DNA of 46,190 nt from Euryarchaeota archaeon (GTDB taxonomy: Archaea; Thermoplasmatota; SW-10-69-26; JACQPN01), in NCBI GenBank assembly GCA_016207515.1, contig JACQPN010000016.1, forward strand, positions 1 to 46,190, written 5' to 3'. Under the pieces are notes generated by a model. That model ran no database searches and was not told the origin of the DNA. It was given only the letters and a program-made list of their open reading frames with translations. Position 1 is the stretch's first letter. Each line of letters begins with the position of its first letter. Below are positions 3,902 through 43,243 of this stretch, in pieces. The translations under genes were made by a program, and so were the position numbers.

Positions 3902-4333
3902 TCAGCAGGCCGCAACGATCATCCCAAGCAACACCACGTTCACCGCCTGCCCGAAGAAACAAAGCGCGCAGAACACCTTCAGACGATACCTCAACGACCA
4001 CCACAGAAAAACGCTCACCCAGACCGTTACGATGGAGACGGCGGTCATTTCAAGGCAATAGGGCAATGCACCCGTGACCAGCCCAATGACTGCGGCCCCG
4101 CCCGCGAGCAAGTACCATCCCATCCCGTAGACCGAATTCGGCAACCCGAAGAGCCGCGCGTACCTGGAATCAACGACGCTCGCGCACGTCCTTCCGTCCA
4201 TCCTGCAGAACTTCGGCACGATTCGCGAATCGGGGGCGATGCGGCGGTAGGTCACGAGCGTGAAGTAGAGCGCGTTGAGGAAGCCGAGGCTTGCGAGGAC
4301 GATTAGCGCGTAAAAGGTCCCTTCGGGTGCCAC
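3902..4333 (-). CDS. VKOR-family thiol-disulfide oxidoreductase
   Basis: 143 residues, GTG start at 4333. It carries the vitamin K epoxide reductase family layout: four predicted membrane helices, loop cysteines C43 and C50 (KFCRMDGRTC), the conserved S-x-Y-A-x-x-F-G-x-P-N-S stretch (DSRYARLFGLPNS, 55-67), and the redox pair C122-A-L-C125 near the last helix. Bacterial and archaeal homologues reoxidise DsbA-like partners using quinone and so support disulfide formation outside the membrane. There is no fused thioredoxin domain, and no thioredoxin-like partner is seen nearby. It is divergent from the APC permease gene. Confidence 0.87.
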   Translation of the reverse strand: MAPEGTFYALIVLASLGFLNALYFTLVTYRRIAPDSRIVPKFCRMDGRTCASVVDSRYARLFGLPNSVYGMGWYLLAGGAAVIGLVTGALPYCLEMTAVSIVTVWVSVFLWWSLRYRLKVFCALCFFGQAVNVVLLGMIVAAC

Positions 4334-4423
4334 AAGCGGGAAACACTATAGTGGTAGATGAGCGGAACGCAAATCGCCAGGCCTCCTTTTCCGACGGCCA
4401 CGGCTCCGCAAACTCCCAAGTTT

Positions 4424-4430
4424 CTTTATC
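4424..4430 (+). promoter_or_regulatory. TATA box of the APC permease
   Basis: CTTTATC is centred 24 bases upstream of GTG 4451, the spacing of a leaderless archaeal gene. This supports GTG 4451 over the upstream ATG 4358. Confidence 0.5.
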
Positions 4431-4450
4431 CCATCGGTGGCTTCAGAATC

Positions 4451-5803
4451 GTGTCGGGCCTCAGGCGCGAGCTTGGCCTCTTCGAGGCGACCACGATAAC
4501 GGTGGGGAGCATGATCGGCTCCGGGATATTCTTCGTCCCCAATCTCGTTGCCCGCGAATTCCCGGACACGAACAGCATCCTCGCGATATGGATACTCGGC
4601 GGTCTGTTCTCACTCACCGGCGCCTTGACCGTCGCGGAGCTTTCCGCGATGTATCCGCGCTCCGGCGGTCCGTACCGTTTCGTCAAGGAGGCGTTCGGCG
4701 AAGGCCCCGCGTTCTTCGTGGGTTGGGGGTACTTTCTCCTTGCCAAGGCCGGCATCGGGGCGGCGGTCGCCTACGTCTTCGCCGTGTATCTCTCCTACTT
4801 CATTCCGTTGAGCGGCCTGGGGATCACCCTGATGGCCGCGTGGTCGCTCGCGGCGCTCACGTTCGTTAATTGGCTCGGTGTAAAACAATCCGGCGGCCTA
4901 CAGAACGGTCTCACGGTCTTGAAGGCCGCATCGCTCGTAGCGCTGGTCGGGGCCGCGATCGTGATCGTCCCGACAGGCGCTCCTTCAACCGCGCAACTCG
5001 TTGCCGGCGGGAGTCTTTCCGCCGCCTTCATCGCCGTCCTCTTCTCCTACAACGCGTGGATCAACGCTACGTTCGTCGCTGAGGAGGTGAAGGACCCCGA
5101 GCGCACGCTGCCGAAAGCGTTAGCATTGGGCGTGGGCATCGTCACGGTCCTCTATGTGGCCGCGAACCTCGCGTACTTGAAAATCCTGGGCGCCGCGGGT
5201 GTGGCTTCGTCCCAACTCGTCGGGACAGACGCGGCAAGCAAGCTTCTTCCCCTCGGTGGCGCGTTCATCGCGGCCGCGGTCCTCGTCTCCACCTTCGGAA
5301 ACCTCAACGGCGGCCTTCTCACCGGCGCCCGGTTGCCGATGGCTATGAGCCAGGACGGCTTGCTCCCACGCCGGTTGTCCTCCTTGTCACGCTCGGGAAC
5401 GCCGGCGGCGGCACTCGGTCTCCAGATGCTAGCGTCCATCGCGCTGGTCCTCACCGGATCGTTCCAGGGGATCATCACGTTCTCGATCTTCGTCATCTGG
5501 GGAAGCCTCCTGCTCATCGCTCTTGCCATCTTCAAACTCCGGCGCGACAAGCCAGATGCGCCGCGACCGTACCGCGTCGTCGGCTATCCAGTGACGCCGG
5601 CGATCTTCGTGGCCGCCGCAGGATTCGTCATGGTCCAGACATTGATCGACCAACCGCTTTCGGCGGCGTATGGGATCGGGATAGTCCTGACAGGAGTGCC
5701 GGTCTACGTCTGGATGCGAAGGAAAAGGACGCGGGGAAACGGCCCAATGCCTGACGGCGAACCTGGGAGGCGCATCGTCCTCAGGCCGATCGACGAGGAT
5801 TGA
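4451..5803 (+). CDS. APC-family amino acid permease
   Basis: 450 residues from GTG 4451. The protein starts SGLRRELGLFEATTITVGSMIG, the usual N-terminus of amino acid-polyamine-organocation transporters, with the substrate-binding G-S-G-I-F of TM1 near residues 22-28 and about 12 membrane segments in total. GGPYRFVKEAFGEGPAFFVGW (TM3 region) and SYNAWINATFVAEEVKDPERTLPKAL (TM6 region) are also typical. The frame is open back to ATG 4358, but that 31-residue extension lacks family similarity and contains the TATA box. It probably imports amino acids by proton or cation symport; the substrate cannot be told. Its 3' end overlaps the converging DUF998 gene by 23 bases. Confidence 0.9.
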   Translation: MSGLRRELGLFEATTITVGSMIGSGIFFVPNLVAREFPDTNSILAIWILGGLFSLTGALTVAELSAMYPRSGGPYRFVKEAFGEGPAFFVGWGYFLLAKAGIGAAVAYVFAVYLSYFIPLSGLGITLMAAWSLAALTFVNWLGVKQSGGLQNGLTVLKAASLVALVGAAIVIVPTGAPSTAQLVAGGSLSAAFIAVLFSYNAWINATFVAEEVKDPERTLPKALALGVGIVTVLYVAANLAYLKILGAAGVASSQLVGTDAASKLLPLGGAFIAAAVLVSTFGNLNGGLLTGARLPMAMSQDGLLPRRLSSLSRSGTPAAALGLQMLASIALVLTGSFQGIITFSIFVIWGSLLLIALAIFKLRRDKPDAPRPYRVVGYPVTPAIFVAAAGFVMVQTLIDQPLSAAYGIGIVLTGVPVYVWMRRKRTRGNGPMPDGEPGRRIVLRPIDED

Positions 5804-9565: not shown

Positions 9566-10480
9566 CTAGCTCACCAGGTACTGGAAGATCGCTTCCACGT
9601 TGTCGTCAAGGGAGGTCACCGAGGTGAATGGAAGCCTCTTGGCCATGAGCAGGTTCTGGAGTTCCGCGTGGAATTCCTTCGGCCGCTTCGTCTTCACGAC
9701 CACGGCCCCCTCTTCTCGTTGGAGGGAAAGCACTGTGTCCCAGCCCCAAAGGAGCGCGCCAAGCTCTACGGCGTTGGTCGTCGCGATGCGGACGGTCCGT
9801 GGATAGCGGTCGAGAAGGTCGCGCACTTCGTCGATACGACCGTGCGCCATCAACCGGCCGTGGTTCATGAGCATGATCCGATCCGTCATCGCCTCGACGT
9901 CGGGAAGCACGTGGGTCGAGACGATGACGCTTTTTCCGGATGAGGCCAGGCCTCTGATGAGTTGTATGAGGTCACGTCGAGCGAGGGGGTCGCTTCCAAG
10001 CAGCGGCTCGTCGAGGATCAGGAGTTCGGGTTCATTGAGTAGCGCCAACGCGAGTTTCAACTTCTGGCGCATCCCGCGGCTGTACGTCTCGACGCGCCTG
10101 TCGGCCACACCCGAGAGGCCTACTTGGCGCAAGGCCCTCTCCGCCGCCTCGCTTGCGGCGGCGCGCGACAGCCCTCCAAGCTCGCCCGAAAGGACCGCGA
10201 CTTCCGTCCCCGTGCGTTCGCGCCACGGGGCGTCGCCCTCGGGGACGAAGCCTACGCGGGAAAGGAGCTTCGGGTTCGACCAGGGTCTCTCGCCGAGGAC
10301 GAGCAGTTCGCCCTGCGACGGTTCGACAAGCCCCATCGCCATCTTCATGAGCGTTGATTTCCCGGCACCGTTCGGGCCAAGAAGCCCCGTGACACCGGGC
10401 AAGACGTCGAGCGTCACGTCGTTCACGGCGATGACGTCGCCGTACCATTTTGACACGGCCCTGGCCTCAAGCACCGCCAC
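9566..10480 (-). CDS. ABC transporter ATPase (pair B)
   Basis: 304 residues, GTG start. Walker A GPNGAGKST at about 35-43, signature YSRGMRQKL, Walker B ELLILDEPLLGSDP and the switch histidine in VSTHVLPDVEAM are all present. The C-terminal ~75 residues are the accessory domain common in ABC-2 exporters (CcmA/NatA type). The stop of the upstream permease gene overlaps the GTG by one base (TAGTG). The gene pairs with the CARDB permease downstream; the substrate is unknown. Confidence 0.92.
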   Translation of the reverse strand: MAVLEARAVSKWYGDVIAVNDVTLDVLPGVTGLLGPNGAGKSTLMKMAMGLVEPSQGELLVLGERPWSNPKLLSRVGFVPEGDAPWRERTGTEVAVLSGELGGLSRAAASEAAERALRQVGLSGVADRRVETYSRGMRQKLKLALALLNEPELLILDEPLLGSDPLARRDLIQLIRGLASSGKSVIVSTHVLPDVEAMTDRIMLMNHGRLMAHGRIDEVRDLLDRYPRTVRIATTNAVELGALLWGWDTVLSLQREEGAVVVKTKRPKEFHAELQNLLMAKRLPFTSVTSLDDNVEAIFQYLVS

Positions 10481-11307
10481 TACGTCTCACCTGCCAGGCG
10501 CGGGTGCTTCCATGCGACGAAGCCCCAACCGATGAGCACCAGCACCGAGAGTTCGATGAGCCCCCACCACGCAGGGACGGCGCCGGTGGGGGGGAGGGCG
10601 AATATCCATTCGACCTGGGCTGCCGCGGCGGAGAACGGGGACAGGAGCTGCATGTTCGGGTCCCGGGTGATGCCCTGAAGGAGGTTCGCGACGATCACGT
10701 CGGCCACGGCGAAGCCGCCGAAGAGGATCAACGTGGCGGCCCGGCTTGATTTCGCGACACACGATAGGCCGAGCCCCAAGCCGGAGACCACCAGGCCCCA
10801 CATGAGGCCATAAACGAGGGCGCGTAACGGCATGAGGTTCCAATCCTGCGGCTGTACCGTGAAGAAGACGAATGACATTGCGAAGTAGAGAAGGGCGGGG
10901 ATGAAGACGGCGAGTGTCGTGACCCCGACGATCGCGAGCACTTTTCCGGCAAGGTAATCGAGGCGCGTCACCGCCCTCGAAAGGTAGAGTTCCAAGGCCC
11001 CGCGGCGCGAATCCTCAAGAAGCGCCGGCCCCGCCATCGCCGCGCCGACGGCGAGTACACCCCATCTAAGGTTGTTCAGGAAGAAGAGGAAATTCTCCAT
11101 CGTGTGGACGCCGTCGCCGCGCCCCCGGGAAAGCGTGTACATACTCCCAAGGTACACGATGGTGTAAGCAAGCACCAGTGTGAGCGCCGTGCGGGACCAC
11201 GTGTTGTTGATCGCCTTCCTTATCTCCTCGGCCGCGACGACACCGACCGCTGGCCGGTTGTTGAGCACACCACCCCATCGCGGGTAACCCGTGACACCCT
11301 CAGGCAC
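10480..11307 (-). CDS. ABC-2 type permease (pair A)
   Basis: 275 residues with six predicted membrane helices (~35-55, 70-95, 115-145, 160-190, 205-225, 245-265) and a cytosolic S-R-R-G-A-L-E-L-Y-L-S-R-A-V-T-R loop after the second helix. That loop is the equivalent of the E-x-x-x-G-T-L-x-x-L-L element in ABC-2 permeases. It overlaps the upstream ATPase by 8 bases and the downstream ATPase by one. It lacks the CARDB insert of the second permease, so the four genes look like two different half-transporters that may form one complex (inference). Confidence 0.85.
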   Translation of the reverse strand: MPEGVTGYPRWGGVLNNRPAVGVVAAEEIRKAINNTWSRTALTLVLAYTIVYLGSMYTLSRGRGDGVHTMENFLFFLNNLRWGVLAVGAAMAGPALLEDSRRGALELYLSRAVTRLDYLAGKVLAIVGVTTLAVFIPALLYFAMSFVFFTVQPQDWNLMPLRALVYGLMWGLVVSGLGLGLSCVAKSSRAATLILFGGFAVADVIVANLLQGITRDPNMQLLSPFSAAAAQVEWIFALPPTGAVPAWWGLIELSVLVLIGWGFVAWKHPRLAGET

Positions 11308-37652: not shown

Positions 37653-40481
37653 ATGATCACGAACGCCCCCAAGAAGATCGGGAGCATCGCCTTCGCGCTG
37701 CTCTCGCCCACCGAGATCCGCGCGCTTTCGGCGACGAAGATCATCACGGCCGACACCTACGACGATGACGGGTTCCCCATCGACATGGGGCTCATGGACC
37801 CGCGCCTAGGGGTCATCGAGCCGGGACTTCGCTGCAAGACCTGCGGTCGCACGGTCGGCGACTGTCCCGGACACTTCGGCCACATCGATCTCGCGATGCC
37901 GGTGATCCATGTCGGGTACACGAAGATCATCAAAGGTCTTCTCAAATCCGCTTGCAGAGCATGCGGCAAGATCCTCCTTCCGAAGGAGACCGCGGAGAAG
38001 CACTACGCGGAGTTCAAGCGGATCAAGGAAGCGAACGAGGACACGGGTTACCTGCTCTCGGTCGTCGCCAAGGAGGTCGCAAAGCCCGCGGGCGCTGCGT
38101 GCCCCCGCTGCGGCGAGTCGATAAAGAAGATCGACTTCGAAAAACCGACGACCTTCCGCGAAGAGGGCCATAAACTGACCCCCGTCGACATCCGGGAGTG
38201 GCTGGAGAAGGTCAGTAACGAAGACCTGGAGCTTCTCAACATCAACACGAAAGTCGCTCGACCCGAGTGGATGATCCTCACCGTGCTTCCGGTGCCGCCG
38301 GTGACGATGCGTCCGTCGATCACCCTCGAATCAGGTGAGAGGAGCGAGGACGACCTCACTCACAAGCTGGTGGACGTTCTGCGCATCAACCAGCGTCTTC
38401 AAGAGAACCGCGACGCCGGGGCCCCGCAACTCATCGTCGAGGACCTTTGGGAGTTGCTCCAGTACCACATCACGACCTATATGGACAACCAGACGTCCGG
38501 GATACCGCCCGCAAGGCACCGTTCGGGCCGGCCCTTGAAGACCTTGAGCCAGCGGCTCAAGGGCAAGGAAGGCCGGTTCAGGTCCAACCTCTCGGGAAAG
38601 CGGGTGAATTTCAGCGCGAGGACGGTCGTCTCGCCCGACCCGAACATCAGCATCAACGAGGTCGGCGTGCCATTGGAAGCCGCGATGGAACTCACGGTGC
38701 CGATGAAGATCACCGTGTACAACATCGAGAAAGCGAAGGAACTGGTGGCCAACGGGCCGGACAAGCACCCGGGCGTGAACTACGTCGTGCGATCCGATGG
38801 ACGGCGAATCAAGACGACCGCGCAAAACGCGGAGGAAGTCGCGAAGAGGCTCGAACCCGGTTTCATCGTCGAGCGCCACTTGATGGACGGGGACATCGTC
38901 CTCTTCAACCGGCAACCGTCGCTACACCGGATGTCCATGATGGCGCACGAAGTGCGCATCATGCCGCACAAGACGTTCCGCGTCAACCTCTCCGTGTGTC
39001 CGCCGTACAACGCTGATTTCGACGGCGACGAGATGAACCTCCACGTGCTCCAAGGCGAAGAGGCACGGGCGGAGGCCAGGATACTGATGCGCGTTCAGGA
39101 GCACATCCTCAGTCCGCGCTTCGGCGGTCCCATCATCGGTGCGATCCACGACGAGATCACCGGCGCGTTCCTCCTGACGTTCCGCGACCAGTTCTTCACG
39201 CGCGGGCAAACGCTCGCTATCCTTGCGAAGATCAACCAGAGGAACGTCAAGTACCCGCCAGCCTTCAAGGCAGGCGACAAGCTCCCAGACGGGACGAAAG
39301 CCATCGAGGATCTCTGGACGGGAAAACAGGTGTTCAGCCATGTCCTTCCGGAGGGCCTCTCGATGAGGTTCCACCCGGAGATACGCGAAGGCGAATCGTG
39401 CGCGGAGGACAATCTCCCCATCTCGACGGGCGCCAAGGCCGGAAAACCCGGCGTCGACTACTGCCAATACGGCGGTTACACGGTCATCGAGGACGGCCTG
39501 CTCATCCACGGCCCCATCGACGAGAAGGCGATCGGCGCTTTCAAGGGCGAGATCCTGAACAAGGTGATCAGGAAGCACGGGGCCGACGGGGCAAGGGCCT
39601 TCATCGACAACGTGACGAAGCTCTGCATCGGAGCGATCATGGTCCAGGGTTTCACGACCGGCATCGACGACGAGGACATCCCCGTGGAGGCGCGCCGCCA
39701 GATCGACGGGCTTCTTACGGAACAGATGGACAAGGTCGAGAAGCTCGTCGCGGCGTACCACGCGGGCCAGCTCGACCAGATGCCGGGCCGCTCTCTGGAG
39801 GAGACGCTTGAGATCAACATCATGCGTGAACTCGGCAAGGCCCGTGACGGAGCCGGAAAGATCGCCGGTGGTCACTTGGGGCTTGACAACTCGGCCGTCA
39901 TCATGGCCAAATCGGGCGCCCGTGGTTCGATGCTCAACCTGTCGCAGATGGCGGGTTGCGTCGGGCAACAGGCCGTCCGTGGCGAACGCATCAGCAGGGG
40001 CTACCAGAACAGGACGCTCCCGCACTTCAAGCGCGGCGATCTGGGCGCCTCCGCTAAGGGCTTCGTGAAATCGAGCTACAAGACCGGGCTCTCGCCAGTC
40101 GAGTACTTCTTCCACTCGATGGGTGGTCGTGAAGGTCTCGTCGACACGGCCGTTCGGACATCGCGCTCAGGCTACATGCAAAGACGCCTCATCAACGCTC
40201 TCGAAGACCTGAAAGTCGAATACGACGGCACGGTAAGGAACACCGTCGGCACCATCATCCAATTCGACTACGGAGAGGACGGCGTCGACCCCACGCGGTC
40301 GCTACGCGGCAAGTCCGTGAACCTCAACGAGGCGATACGCGAGGTCCTCGGCATCGACGTTGGTCCGGAGAAGACGACGCGTGGGCGCTCGACTTACGAC
40401 CGTGAGGACGTGGAACTCACCCGATCGATGCTCGACGAGCTTTCTGAAAACGACGAAGACACCGACTACGGAGGCGAGTAA
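37653..40481 (+). CDS. rpoA1: RNA polymerase subunit A' (largest subunit, N-terminal part)
   Basis: 942 residues. The N-terminal zinc-binding clamp is present ([17 protein letters not shown], then CRACGK and CPRCGES). The lid/rudder region [22 protein letters not shown] is clear. The catalytic Mg2+ loop [11 protein letters not shown] has D455, D457 and D459. The bridge-helix region ([18 protein letters not shown]...[21 protein letters not shown]) and trigger-loop neighbourhood ([21 protein letters not shown]) follow. It ends at the normal A'/A'' split point. Confidence 0.97.
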
Positions 40482-40482
40482 A

Positions 40483-42438
40483 GTGGCAAAGAAAGAGGAC
40501 AAGAAGGAAAAGAAGGCCTCCGCGAAACCAGAGAAGGTCGAAAAGAAAGCGAAGCCCGCAACGAAGGACGAACTGCGCGGCGCCAAGAAAATCGAAAAGA
40601 AGGACGACAAGAAGGCCGCCAAAGAGGACGCTATCTCGAAGGCGGGCAAGAAGGGAAAGAAGGGAAAGGCCGAAGAAGGACCTCACGTCGAGCGCGACAT
40701 CGCCGAACTCCAATCCATCAAGGGGATGGAAGACGACGTCGCCGCCGGGCTCTACGATGCGGGCTTCCGCACAAAGGCGGACATCAAGAGGGCCTCGATG
40801 GAGGAACTCCTCGAAGTGGAGCTCCTAAACGAAGAGACCATCCAACAGCTCAAGGACCAGGTCATCGACGTCGAGCAGACGATCGAGGAGTTCACCGAGA
40901 TCCCCGGCATCTCCAAGACCAAGGCCGACGCGTTGATCGAAGCGGGCTACAAGACCATCTTCGACCTCCAACGCGCGACGATCGAGGAACTCGCGGAAGT
41001 GAACGGCATCGGCGAATCGCTCGCCGAACTCCTCAAAGAGCACGTGGGCGAGTACAAGCCGTTCAAGGCACCGGTCTCCGCCGCGGAAGAGCTTGAATTC
41101 ATCGCCTCGACCGGGCCGGAACCGGCCCGCAAGATGAGTGCTCTCGAGAAGAGGGTGCGCGAGATCGCCAAGAAGGCGAAGATCAAGTTGCCGGAGAACG
41201 TCGTCCTCGAACTCTGTACGACCATCGGGGATCGGCGACTCTCTGACGAACGCATCAAGCAACTCCTCGAGGCGTTGAACCGCCAATACTCGCACAACCG
41301 CATCGACCCGACCGAGGCCGCAGGGATCATCGGCGCCCAATCGATCGGCGAACCCGGCACCCAGATGACCATGCGTACTTTCCACTACGCCGGCGTCGCT
41401 GAGATCAACGTCACCTTAGGGCTTCCCCGCCTAATAGAGGTCGTTGACGCCCGACGCGTGCCGTCGACGCCGATGATGGAAGTACACCTCGACCTGGAGC
41501 ACCGGGCGAGCCAGGAGAAGGCCCAACAGGTGGCGGCCGAGATGGAGGCGACGCACCTCATCGACATCGCCTCCGTCGACACGGACCTCGGTACTCGCGA
41601 GGTCGTCATCGTCCCGGACGAGAAGAAGACGAAGCTCAAGAACATCACGGTCGACGGGATCGCGGAGAAACTCAAGAAGCTCAAGAACTCCGTCGTCGAG
41701 GTACGCGGCGACAGGGTCGTCGTGAAGCCCGTCGTCGAGTCCTACAAGGCCCTGATGACGCTCGCAAGCGAGGCGAAACGCAGCCAGATCAAGGGGATAG
41801 CCGACATCACGCGCGTCGTGATGAGGCGCGAGGAGGACGGCTACGTCATCTATACGGAAGGCTCGAACCTCGCGAAGGTCATCCAGATCCCGGGCGTCGA
41901 CACGACATCGACGCACACGAACAACTTCCGCGAGATCTACGAGGTCTTGGGGATAGAGGCCGCGCGCCGCGCCATCATGAACGAGGCCCACAAGACGCTG
42001 TCAGAGCAAGGTCTCACCGTCGACATCAGGCACTTGATGCTTGTCGCGGACGTGATGACCGTCGATGGAAACATCCGCGCGATCGGCAGGCACGGTATCT
42101 CGGGAGAGAAATCGTCGGTCCTTGCCCGCGCCGCGTTCGAGATCACCGTGAACCACCTCTTGGAGGCCGCCCTCATAGGCGAGGTCGACCCGCTGGAGGG
42201 AGTCGCCGAGAACATCATCGTGGGCCAACCCGTCTCCCTAGGTACCGGGGCCGTGAGCCTTGCGATGAAACCCGGCAGTTTCACGAAGATGGCCGCGAGG
42301 AAGAAGGAGTGGATACCGCCGCCACCGCCGGTAATCGAGGCGCCGCCCGCAGAGGCGGCGCCTGCGCCTGAAGCCACGGACGCCGACTCCACGGAGGAAG
42401 CGCCTGACGCGACCGAGGAAGAGAAGGAGGCACAATAG
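40483..42438 (+). CDS. rpoA2: RNA polymerase subunit A'' with extra N-terminal helix-hairpin-helix region
   Basis: 651 residues from GTG 40483, one base after the rpoA' stop; family members are usually ~380-400. Residues 1-65 are a Lys/Glu/Ala tail. Residues ~70-118 and ~124-180 are two HhH units ([55 protein letters not shown]). The normal A'' core starts near 208 ([20 protein letters not shown]) and contains [40 protein letters not shown] and the cleft/clamp end. The last ~50 residues are a Pro/Ala/Glu tail. The frame is open further upstream, but that region belongs to rpoA'. Confidence 0.95.
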
Positions 42439-42835: not shown

Positions 42836-43243
42836 ATGGAATCGATGCGTCTCATCGCGGCGTTCCAGTCGATGACCCAATCGAGCGTTAGGGACTGTGT
42901 CGACGAGCCCGACCGCTTGGTCTTCGTGGTCGACGAGACCGACATCGGCCGCGCGATCGGGAAGGGCGGAGCCCACCTCGAACGCGTCAAGAACTATTTC
43001 AAGCGCGATGTGGAGATAATCGCGTACAACCCCGACCCCGCGACGTTCGTCGGGAACATCTTCAGGCGCCACGACGTGCAGAAAGTAGAGATATACGACC
43101 GAGGCGGAGGCGTCAAGCGAGCGACCGTCACCGTCGACCCAAGGTCGAAGGGAAAGGCCATCGGCAAGGGTGGGCGGAACATCAAGCTCGCGAGGCTTCT
43201 CGCCGAGCGCCACCATGGCATTCTAGAAGTCGCGGTGGAGTAG
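42836..43243 (+). CDS. nusA: Archaeal NusA (two KH domains)
   Basis: 135 residues if started at ATG 42836. KH1 has D-I-G-R-A-I-G-K-G-G-A-H (residues ~38-49) and KH2 has GKAIGKGGRNIKLARLLAE (~103-121). It is a transcription-elongation RNA-binding factor lacking the bacterial N-terminal and S1 domains, as in archaea. Similarity to archaeal NusA (V-K-L-T...) extends five to seven codons upstream to CTG 42815, where no ATG, GTG or TTG exists before a TAG. The true start may therefore be non-standard. The usual downstream rps12 and rps7 are absent here. Confidence 0.93.
   Translation: MESMRLIAAFQSMTQSSVRDCVDEPDRLVFVVDETDIGRAIGKGGAHLERVKNYFKRDVEIIAYNPDPATFVGNIFRRHDVQKVEIYDRGGGVKRATVTVDPRSKGKAIGKGGRNIKLARLLAERHHGILEVAVE

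What the first reader, a model, noticed from the sequence alone, without database searches (positions are those of the whole stretch)
40483..41103. RpoA'' carries a ~200-residue N-terminal extension: Lys-rich tail plus two HhH units
Seen: A'' of 651 residues, with residues 1-65 rich in K/E/A and residues ~70-180 reading as two helix-hairpin-helix motifs (I-K-G-M..., I-P-G-I..., V-N-G-I-G). Known: archaeal A'' is normally ~380-400 residues and begins with the equivalent of residue ~208 here. HhH units bind DNA backbone nonspecifically. Inference: a DNA-binding module attached where A' and A'' meet could grip upstream or downstream DNA or replace a separate factor. An accidental fusion of a former small HhH gene is also possible.
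Basis: partly seen in the sequence, partly recalled or inferred. Interest (0 to 1): 0.75.

Follow-up and report, generated by a model that had tools for sequence, protein, structure and literature searches.

The report
RNA polymerase subunit with hairpin-helix tail
The archaeal RNA-polymerase subunit A'' in this genome carries a real, conserved extra arm of two small hairpin-helix domains and a lysine-rich tail, one form of a little-noticed add-on that most families of this archaeal phylum attach at this site, probably to dock partner proteins or to hold nucleic acid.

Summary
Confirmed and broadened. rpoA2 (40483-42438, GTG start, conserved Shine-Dalgarno) encodes 651 aa. The conventional A'' begins at residue ~222. 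Before it lie a Lys-rich tail (1-72) and two complete (HhH)2 domains of the HHH_5 type (73-129, 133-191), i.e. four hairpin positions. It is not an artefact: six other genomes of the same class, assembled separately, have one unbroken A'' frame with two or three such domains, and domain 2 is nearly as conserved as the catalytic core. It is not unique either: 26 of 42 family-level groups sampled in the phylum (Thermoplasmatota by its named members) carry an HhH domain here, eight carry an unrelated domain without a Pfam or PDB match (two have both), and eight have little or nothing. Methanosarcinia, Archaeoglobi and all solved archaeal polymerases lack it. It fills the slot where Pol II has its foot. 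Each window HhH domain has net charge -8; the only strong structural match is NusA, in the tandem acidic-repeat region, which docks proteins. I therefore favour a tethered protein-docking arm over simple DNA gripping; neither was shown. The same HHH_5 unit is also attached to ribosomal proteins uS3 and eL32 here, but a link to the polymerase arm has no phylogenetically independent support.

The parts
40483..42438 (+). rpoA2, RNA polymerase subunit A'' (Rpo1C), 651 aa, GTG start
   Evidence: TIGR02389 481.7 bits at residues 236-596; PF04998
40470..40474 (+). Shine-Dalgarno GGAGG, 8 nt before the GTG start
   Evidence: read directly; the same motif precedes the start in L002-L005 and a related one in L006, L007, L033, L155
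40483..40698 (+). Lys-rich N-terminal tail, residues 1-72, net charge +11, 35% Lys
   Evidence: 28-38% identical to order relatives; absent in f4 (L006, L007)
40699..40869 (+). HHH_5 domain 1, residues 73-129, net -8, degenerate hairpins, 35-47% identical to order relatives
40879..41055 (+). HHH_5 domain 2, residues 133-191, net -8, hairpins IPGIS and VNGIG, 59-69% identical to order relatives (core 69-73%)
41056..41136 (+). linker, residues 192-218, poorly conserved and low-confidence in the model
41137..42273 (+). conserved A'' core, residues 219-597
42274..42435 (+). Pro/Ala/Glu-rich acidic C-terminal tail, residues 598-651
37653..40481 (+). rpoA1, subunit A' (Rpo1N), 942 aa; its C-terminal end is the other side of the junction
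   Evidence: TIGR02390 1365.7 bits

Best explanation
Subunit A'' of this archaeon carries a selected, lineage-specific N-terminal arm: a flexible Lys-rich tail followed by two acidic (HhH)2 domains, hinged to the polymerase body at the A'/A'' junction, which is the slot that Pol II fills with its foot. Shown: the arm exists, is in frame, is conserved across the class, and belongs to a phylum-wide set of add-ons at this site. Inferred: it works as a tethered docking arm, as NusA's tandem acidic repeats do, binding a protein partner of the elongating polymerase through the faces of the HhH domains, while the Lys tail (where present) adds loose nucleic-acid affinity. Domain 2 would be the main contact, because it is the conserved one.
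For: One ORF in seven genomes of the class with two or three HHH_5 domains. Domain 2 is 59-69% identical to order relatives against 69-73% for the core, while tail and linker drift. Model of residues 66-276: HhH pair mostly pLDDT 80-94, two five-helix (HhH)2 domains. The only Foldseek PDB match with E<0.001 is NusA in an E. coli coupling complex, 136 columns; phmmer matches NusA over both domains (2e-5) and eL32 over domain 2 (3e-9); TIGR01954 NusA repeat 9.9e-9. Net -8 per domain. NusA AR2 is a dual HhH that binds SuhB or alpha-CTD as a protein partner (PMC6614801). The junction maps to yeast Rpb1 876/1033; the foot is a multihelical domain reported to dock capping enzyme in yeast (PMC6107522). 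An HhH domain at this site in 26 of 42 families; the phylum-wide 'DT' unit is related to the window domains by profile (prob. 95%) and has the same five-helix order.
Against: No partner is identified and nothing was tested biochemically. The Foldseek match rests on fold and tandem order (TM 0.29, rmsd 14 A over two hinged domains); the HhH fold is shared by many DNA-binding proteins, which fill most other ranks (LigA, Topo V, RadA, Hjm). In family f29 the corresponding domains are near neutral or slightly basic with canonical hairpins, which suits nucleic acid. Acidity may partly reflect proteome-wide acidity in some members. The NusA repeat model scores below its own cut-off (35.2 against 48.15 bits).
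Confidence: 0.5

Rival explanations
1. Nucleic-acid grip: the (HhH)2 domains and the Lys tail bind DNA backbone (downstream or upstream) or the nascent RNA non-specifically and raise processivity or promoter affinity, a cis counterpart of bacterial alpha-CTD.
For: HHH_5 is mostly a DNA-binding domain (general knowledge); the first hairpin of domain 2 ([16 protein letters not shown] in relatives) looks canonical; Lys tail net +11; f29 relatives have near-neutral to basic domains with GIG hairpins; weak match to RNA_pol_A_CTD (0.0023).
Against: Net -8 per domain; conserved Glu in the second hairpin of domain 2; degenerate hairpins in domain 1; f4 lacks the Lys tail and its domains are down to -13; the alpha-CTD model is below its cut-off (18 against 23.8 bits).
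Confidence: 0.3
2. Ribosome coupling: the A'' HhH domains pair with HhH domains attached to uS3 and/or eL32, tying polymerase to ribosome.
For: In this genome the same HHH_5 unit is attached to the uS3 C-terminus and eL32 N-terminus; every genome checked with two or more A'' HHH_5 domains and a readable uS3 also has it on uS3; an HhH-HhH contact between a factor and RNAP is known (NusA AR2 with alpha-CTD, PMC6614801); uS3 is part of the ribosomal helicase that receives mRNA from RNAP (PMC8116511).
Against: The association is not phylogenetically independent (no independent pair in the same direction); G007 has uS3 HhH with no A'' arm, G018 has uS3 and eL32 HhH with only a Lys-rich A'' tail, G013 has an A'' HHH_5 without uS3 HhH; HHH_5 is common in these genomes.
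Confidence: 0.1
3. Passive accretion or structural spacer: the A'/A'' junction is a permissive surface site where mobile domains accumulate with little function beyond stabilising the subunit junction, a foot substitute.
For: Many different contents at this site, including none, in one phylum; about ten state changes on the tree.
Against: Domain 2 is nearly as conserved as the core across divergent families; an HhH domain is retained in most families; the unrelated B domain is kept throughout its clade.
Confidence: 0.09
4. Artefact: frameshift, assembly join or wrong start.
For: None found.
Against: Seven separate assemblies agree, conserved Shine-Dalgarno and start, matching GC3, no stops.
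Confidence: 0.01

Closest known systems
NusA acidic repeats AR1-AR2 (bacteria)
   Same: Tandem acidic (HhH)2 domains attached to the transcription elongation machinery; only PDB fold match with E<0.001; phmmer 2e-5 over both domains
   Different: Sits on RNAP subunit A'' itself, not on NusA; N-terminal; below the NusA-repeat model cut-off; the archaeal nusA homologue encoded in the same window (42836-43243, 135 aa) is too short to carry such repeats
Haloarchaeal eL32 N-terminal HhH
   Same: Closest sequence match in the PDB (3e-9); an HHH_5 unit added to a core archaeal gene-expression protein; eL32 of this genome has one too
   Different: Single domain, on the ribosome, other host protein
Bacterial RNAP alpha-subunit CTD
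   Same: HhH-type domain flexibly tethered to RNAP
   Different: C-terminal, on alpha, DNA-binding (general knowledge); sequence model not met
Pol II Rpb1 foot
   Same: Same position in the subunit (between Rpb1 876 and 1033); helical add-on that docks proteins
   Different: Part of one continuous chain; no HhH match found; not homologous on present evidence
Sulfolobales Rpo13
   Same: Lineage-specific helical addition to archaeal RNAP (PMC2675907)
   Different: Separate subunit near Rpo5 and the clamp head, HTH fold

Membership tests
RpoA'' (Rpo1C, TIGR02389) | Model score above the equivalog cut-off | tested here: met
   481.7 against 420.65 bits
RpoA'' (Rpo1C, TIGR02389) | Gene directly follows rpoA1 in the rpoH-B-B-A'-A'' cluster | tested here: met
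   GTG 1 nt after the rpoA1 stop
HHH_5 (PF14520) | Score above gathering cut-off | tested here: met
   69.7 against 27 bits, two stretches
HHH_5 (PF14520) | Five-helix (HhH)2 fold | tested here: met
   AlphaFold2 model, HhH pair mostly pLDDT 80-94
DNA-binding (HhH)2 proteins | Basic surface and G-h-G hairpins with K/R contacts | tested here: inconclusive
   One near-canonical hairpin in domain 2, others acidic or degenerate; net -8 per domain
DNA-binding (HhH)2 proteins | Measured DNA binding | not testable with these tools
   needs gel shift or fluorescence anisotropy
NusA acidic repeat (TIGR01954) | Score above cut-off 48.15 bits | tested here: not met
   35.2 bits, E 9.9e-9: works-like is possible, membership is not claimed
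Bacterial alpha-CTD (PF03118) | Score above cut-off 23.8 bits | tested here: not met
   18 bits
Pol II foot | Same place in the largest subunit | tested here: met
   flanks align to Rpb1 876 and 1033; foot limits 871-1058 from general knowledge
Pol II foot | Homologous sequence or fold | tested here: inconclusive
   the arm has no sequence match to Rpb1 in the PDB and no Rpb1 among the Foldseek rows shown

The most novel reading that the evidence does not exclude
The A'' arm supplies in cis the tandem acidic-repeat part of NusA that archaeal KH-only NusA lacks, completing a scattered NusA (Rpo7 S1 + aNusA KH + A'' HhH pair), and through HhH-HhH contacts with tagged uS3/eL32 it may link RNAP to the ribosome.
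Probability: 0.1. Interest if true: 0.88.

Novelty: new variant of a known kind. Interest (0 to 1): 0.6.

Why it matters
Archaeal RNA polymerase structures come from Thermococcales and Sulfolobales, whose A'' has no such arm. Most families of a whole archaeal phylum appear to carry extra domains on this catalytic subunit, at the place where Pol II has its foot, and the widespread ones (the 'DT' HhH unit and the B domain) have no Pfam match above cut-off. If the arm docks factors, it makes open questions of archaeal elongation control and transcription-translation coupling testable in culturable members such as Methanomassiliicoccales and Thermoplasmatales. No Thermoplasmatota polymerase was recognisable among the PDB matches shown.

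Tried and rejected
Internal start near 41103/41133: no Shine-Dalgarno, the Met is not conserved (sequence). Separate HhH gene or frameshift: refuted. Fold or family of the B domain: no Pfam match above cut-off and no significant PDB match (best E 0.15, AcrIF14). Co-occurrence of A'' HHH_5 with uS3 HhH: strong raw table (6/1/4/44) but no phylogenetically independent pair supports it. Literature: three searches aimed at the arm found no description of an A'' HhH extension or of a Thermoplasma A'' extension; one further query was malformed and returned nothing. The library lacks most subscription papers, so an old note on the T. acidophilum rpoA sequence cannot be excluded.

Full report
What is there. 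The gene at 40483-42438 (+) encodes a 651-aa subunit A'' of archaeal RNA polymerase. NCBIfam TIGR02389 matches residues 236-596 with 481.7 bits (cut-off 420.65) and solved archaeal A'' chains (391-397 aa) align from residue 222 on, Thermococcus residue 4 falling on residue 222. So about 220 residues precede the conventional subunit. The start is GTG 40483, one nucleotide after the rpoA1 stop, with GGAGG at 40470-40474; the same arrangement is kept in class relatives. The frame has no stop, the other two forward frames have 3 and 1 stops over 40483-41103, and third-position GC of the HhH part equals that of the core (0.86).

Anatomy of the extra part. Residues 1-72 are a Lys-rich tail (35% Lys, net +11). 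Residues 73-129 and 133-191 are two HHH_5 domains (Pfam E 1e-18 on residues 1-207, two stretches). AlphaFold2 on residues 66-276 with three relatives gives two five-helix (HhH)2 domains, mostly pLDDT 80-94, and a low-confidence linker. Each domain holds two hairpin positions, four in all; domain 1 is degenerate ([14 protein letters not shown]), domain 2 has IPGISKTKA and VNGIGESLA. Each domain has net charge -8.

It is not an artefact or a private fusion. Six other genomes of the class (G001-G006) have the same single frame with two (f1, f2) or three (f3, f4) HHH_5 domains, and they form one clade on a tree of the A'' core (SH-aLRT 98). Against order-level relatives, domain 2 is 59-69% identical, the core 69-73%, domain 1 35-47%, the tail about 30%. 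Family f4 has lost or never had the Lys tail (N-tail 20-24 aa, net -8 to -12), so the HhH array, not the tail, is the constant part.

The phylum. Contigs of some of these anonymous genomes have the same lengths as named records: G003 = JAIVGT010000213 (called Halobacteriales), G004 = JAJPHT010000046 (called a proteobacterium, evidently a misnomer), G025 = JASEEW010000120 (Thermoplasmatales); together with the many Thermoplasmata and Methanomassiliicoccales neighbours this places the window in Thermoplasmatota (inference). Among 42 family-level groups with a complete A'' start, 26 have an HhH domain at the N-terminus, 8 have a different domain (B/BL; two of these also have HhH), 8 have only a short stub, and a few have only a long tail without a recognised domain. 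The common HhH form is a ~55-aa unit beginning (M)AKKDTxxALxxRG, followed by a Lys-rich linker ('DT'). It has no Pfam match above cut-off, is related to the window domains by profile comparison (probability 95%, single-comparison E 2e-8) and is predicted with the same order of five helices. HHH_5 arrays on A'' arose about three times (class f1-f4; f29, where they follow a DT unit; f11, a single domain). The profiles used were built from members of these sets, so the seed members match by construction; the counts rest on the other members too. The B domain (motif WKDxxxNxxxI...PxxYAVDF...GYIT) is kept throughout a clade with families f23, f27, f34 and f41, and has no Pfam match above cut-off and no significant PDB match. 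Methanosarcinia and Archaeoglobi have 0-5 extra residues.

Where it sits. Aligning the flanks to eukaryotic subunits puts the A' side at yeast Rpb1 876 and the A'' side at Rpb1 1033, that is, within the foot of Pol II (limits from general knowledge). In yeast the foot is described as multihelical and as a proposed docking surface for capping enzyme (PMC6107522).

How it probably works. Sequence and fold both point first to HhH domains on other gene-expression proteins: haloarchaeal eL32 N-terminus (3e-9) and NusA acidic repeats (2e-5) by phmmer, NusA by Foldseek (the only E<0.001). NusA AR2 is a dual HhH that binds SuhB or the alpha-CTD (PMC6614801). Acidity, a conserved Glu in a hairpin, and conservation concentrated in domain 2 suit a protein-docking arm. 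DNA or RNA gripping remains a serious rival: most HHH_5 domains bind DNA, the Lys tail is basic, and the f29 version is less acidic. A review of archaeal coupling notes that archaeal NusA has only KH domains and that Rpo7 S1 plus aNusA KH may together stand for bacterial NusA (PMC8116511); an acidic HhH pair on A'' would fill the remaining gap. This is a hypothesis.

The ribosome link. In this genome the same HHH_5 unit is attached to uS3 (C-terminus) and eL32 (N-terminus). Across 55 genomes scored for both (uS3 unread in G002, A'' unread in G056), the raw table A'' HHH_5 / uS3 HhH is 6 both, 1 A'' only, 4 uS3 only, 44 neither, but no phylogenetically independent pair goes the same way, and there are exceptions on both sides (G007, G018, G013). 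I do not claim a functional link.

Verdict. Observation confirmed; 'unusual attachment' is right for archaeal RNAP in general, but the phenomenon is phylum-wide and modular, which is the more interesting result. Function remains inferred.

Noticed in passing
L181 (G000:C25) 4296-5222 and 9805-10545: Ribosomal protein uS3 has an added C-terminal HHH_5 domain and eL32 an added N-terminal one, in the same ribosomal cluster; also in class relatives and in a few other families.
   Followed up: partly
L022, L110, L111-L115, L134, L138-L140, L161, L162, L172, L173, L179 (B) and L020, L025-L027, L030, L148, L154, L180 (BL): N-terminus of A'': An ~130-165-aa domain without a Pfam match above cut-off or a significant PDB match (WKD...PxxYAVDF...GYIT) replaces or joins the HhH domain on A''; kept throughout one clade, duplicated in L179.
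   Followed up: partly
42274-42435: A'' ends in a Pro/Ala/Glu-rich acidic tail of ~54 aa ([14 protein letters not shown]...), variable in class relatives, at the end of the subunit from which Pol II's CTD emerges.
   Followed up: no
40335-40478: A' has ~45 residues after the conserved end (DGVDPT...), an acidic tail on the other side of the same junction.
   Followed up: no
L026, L027, L030 (family f12): Before the BL domain, f12 A'' has another conserved stretch (..DLPKDGVLKLLGPDSEHSLEEVL..GISGKRF.R.FAWV) that may be a further divergent HhH unit.
   Followed up: no
L097 residues ~70-170: A'' extension with a Thr/Lys/Ala repeat run ((TTTKAATK)n) between the DT unit and the core.
   Followed up: no
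L031, L032 (records JAIVGT010000213, JAJPHT010000046): Public records of close relatives are labelled Halobacteriales and Proteobacteria; their RNA polymerase places them with the window's class, so the labels look wrong.
   Followed up: partly
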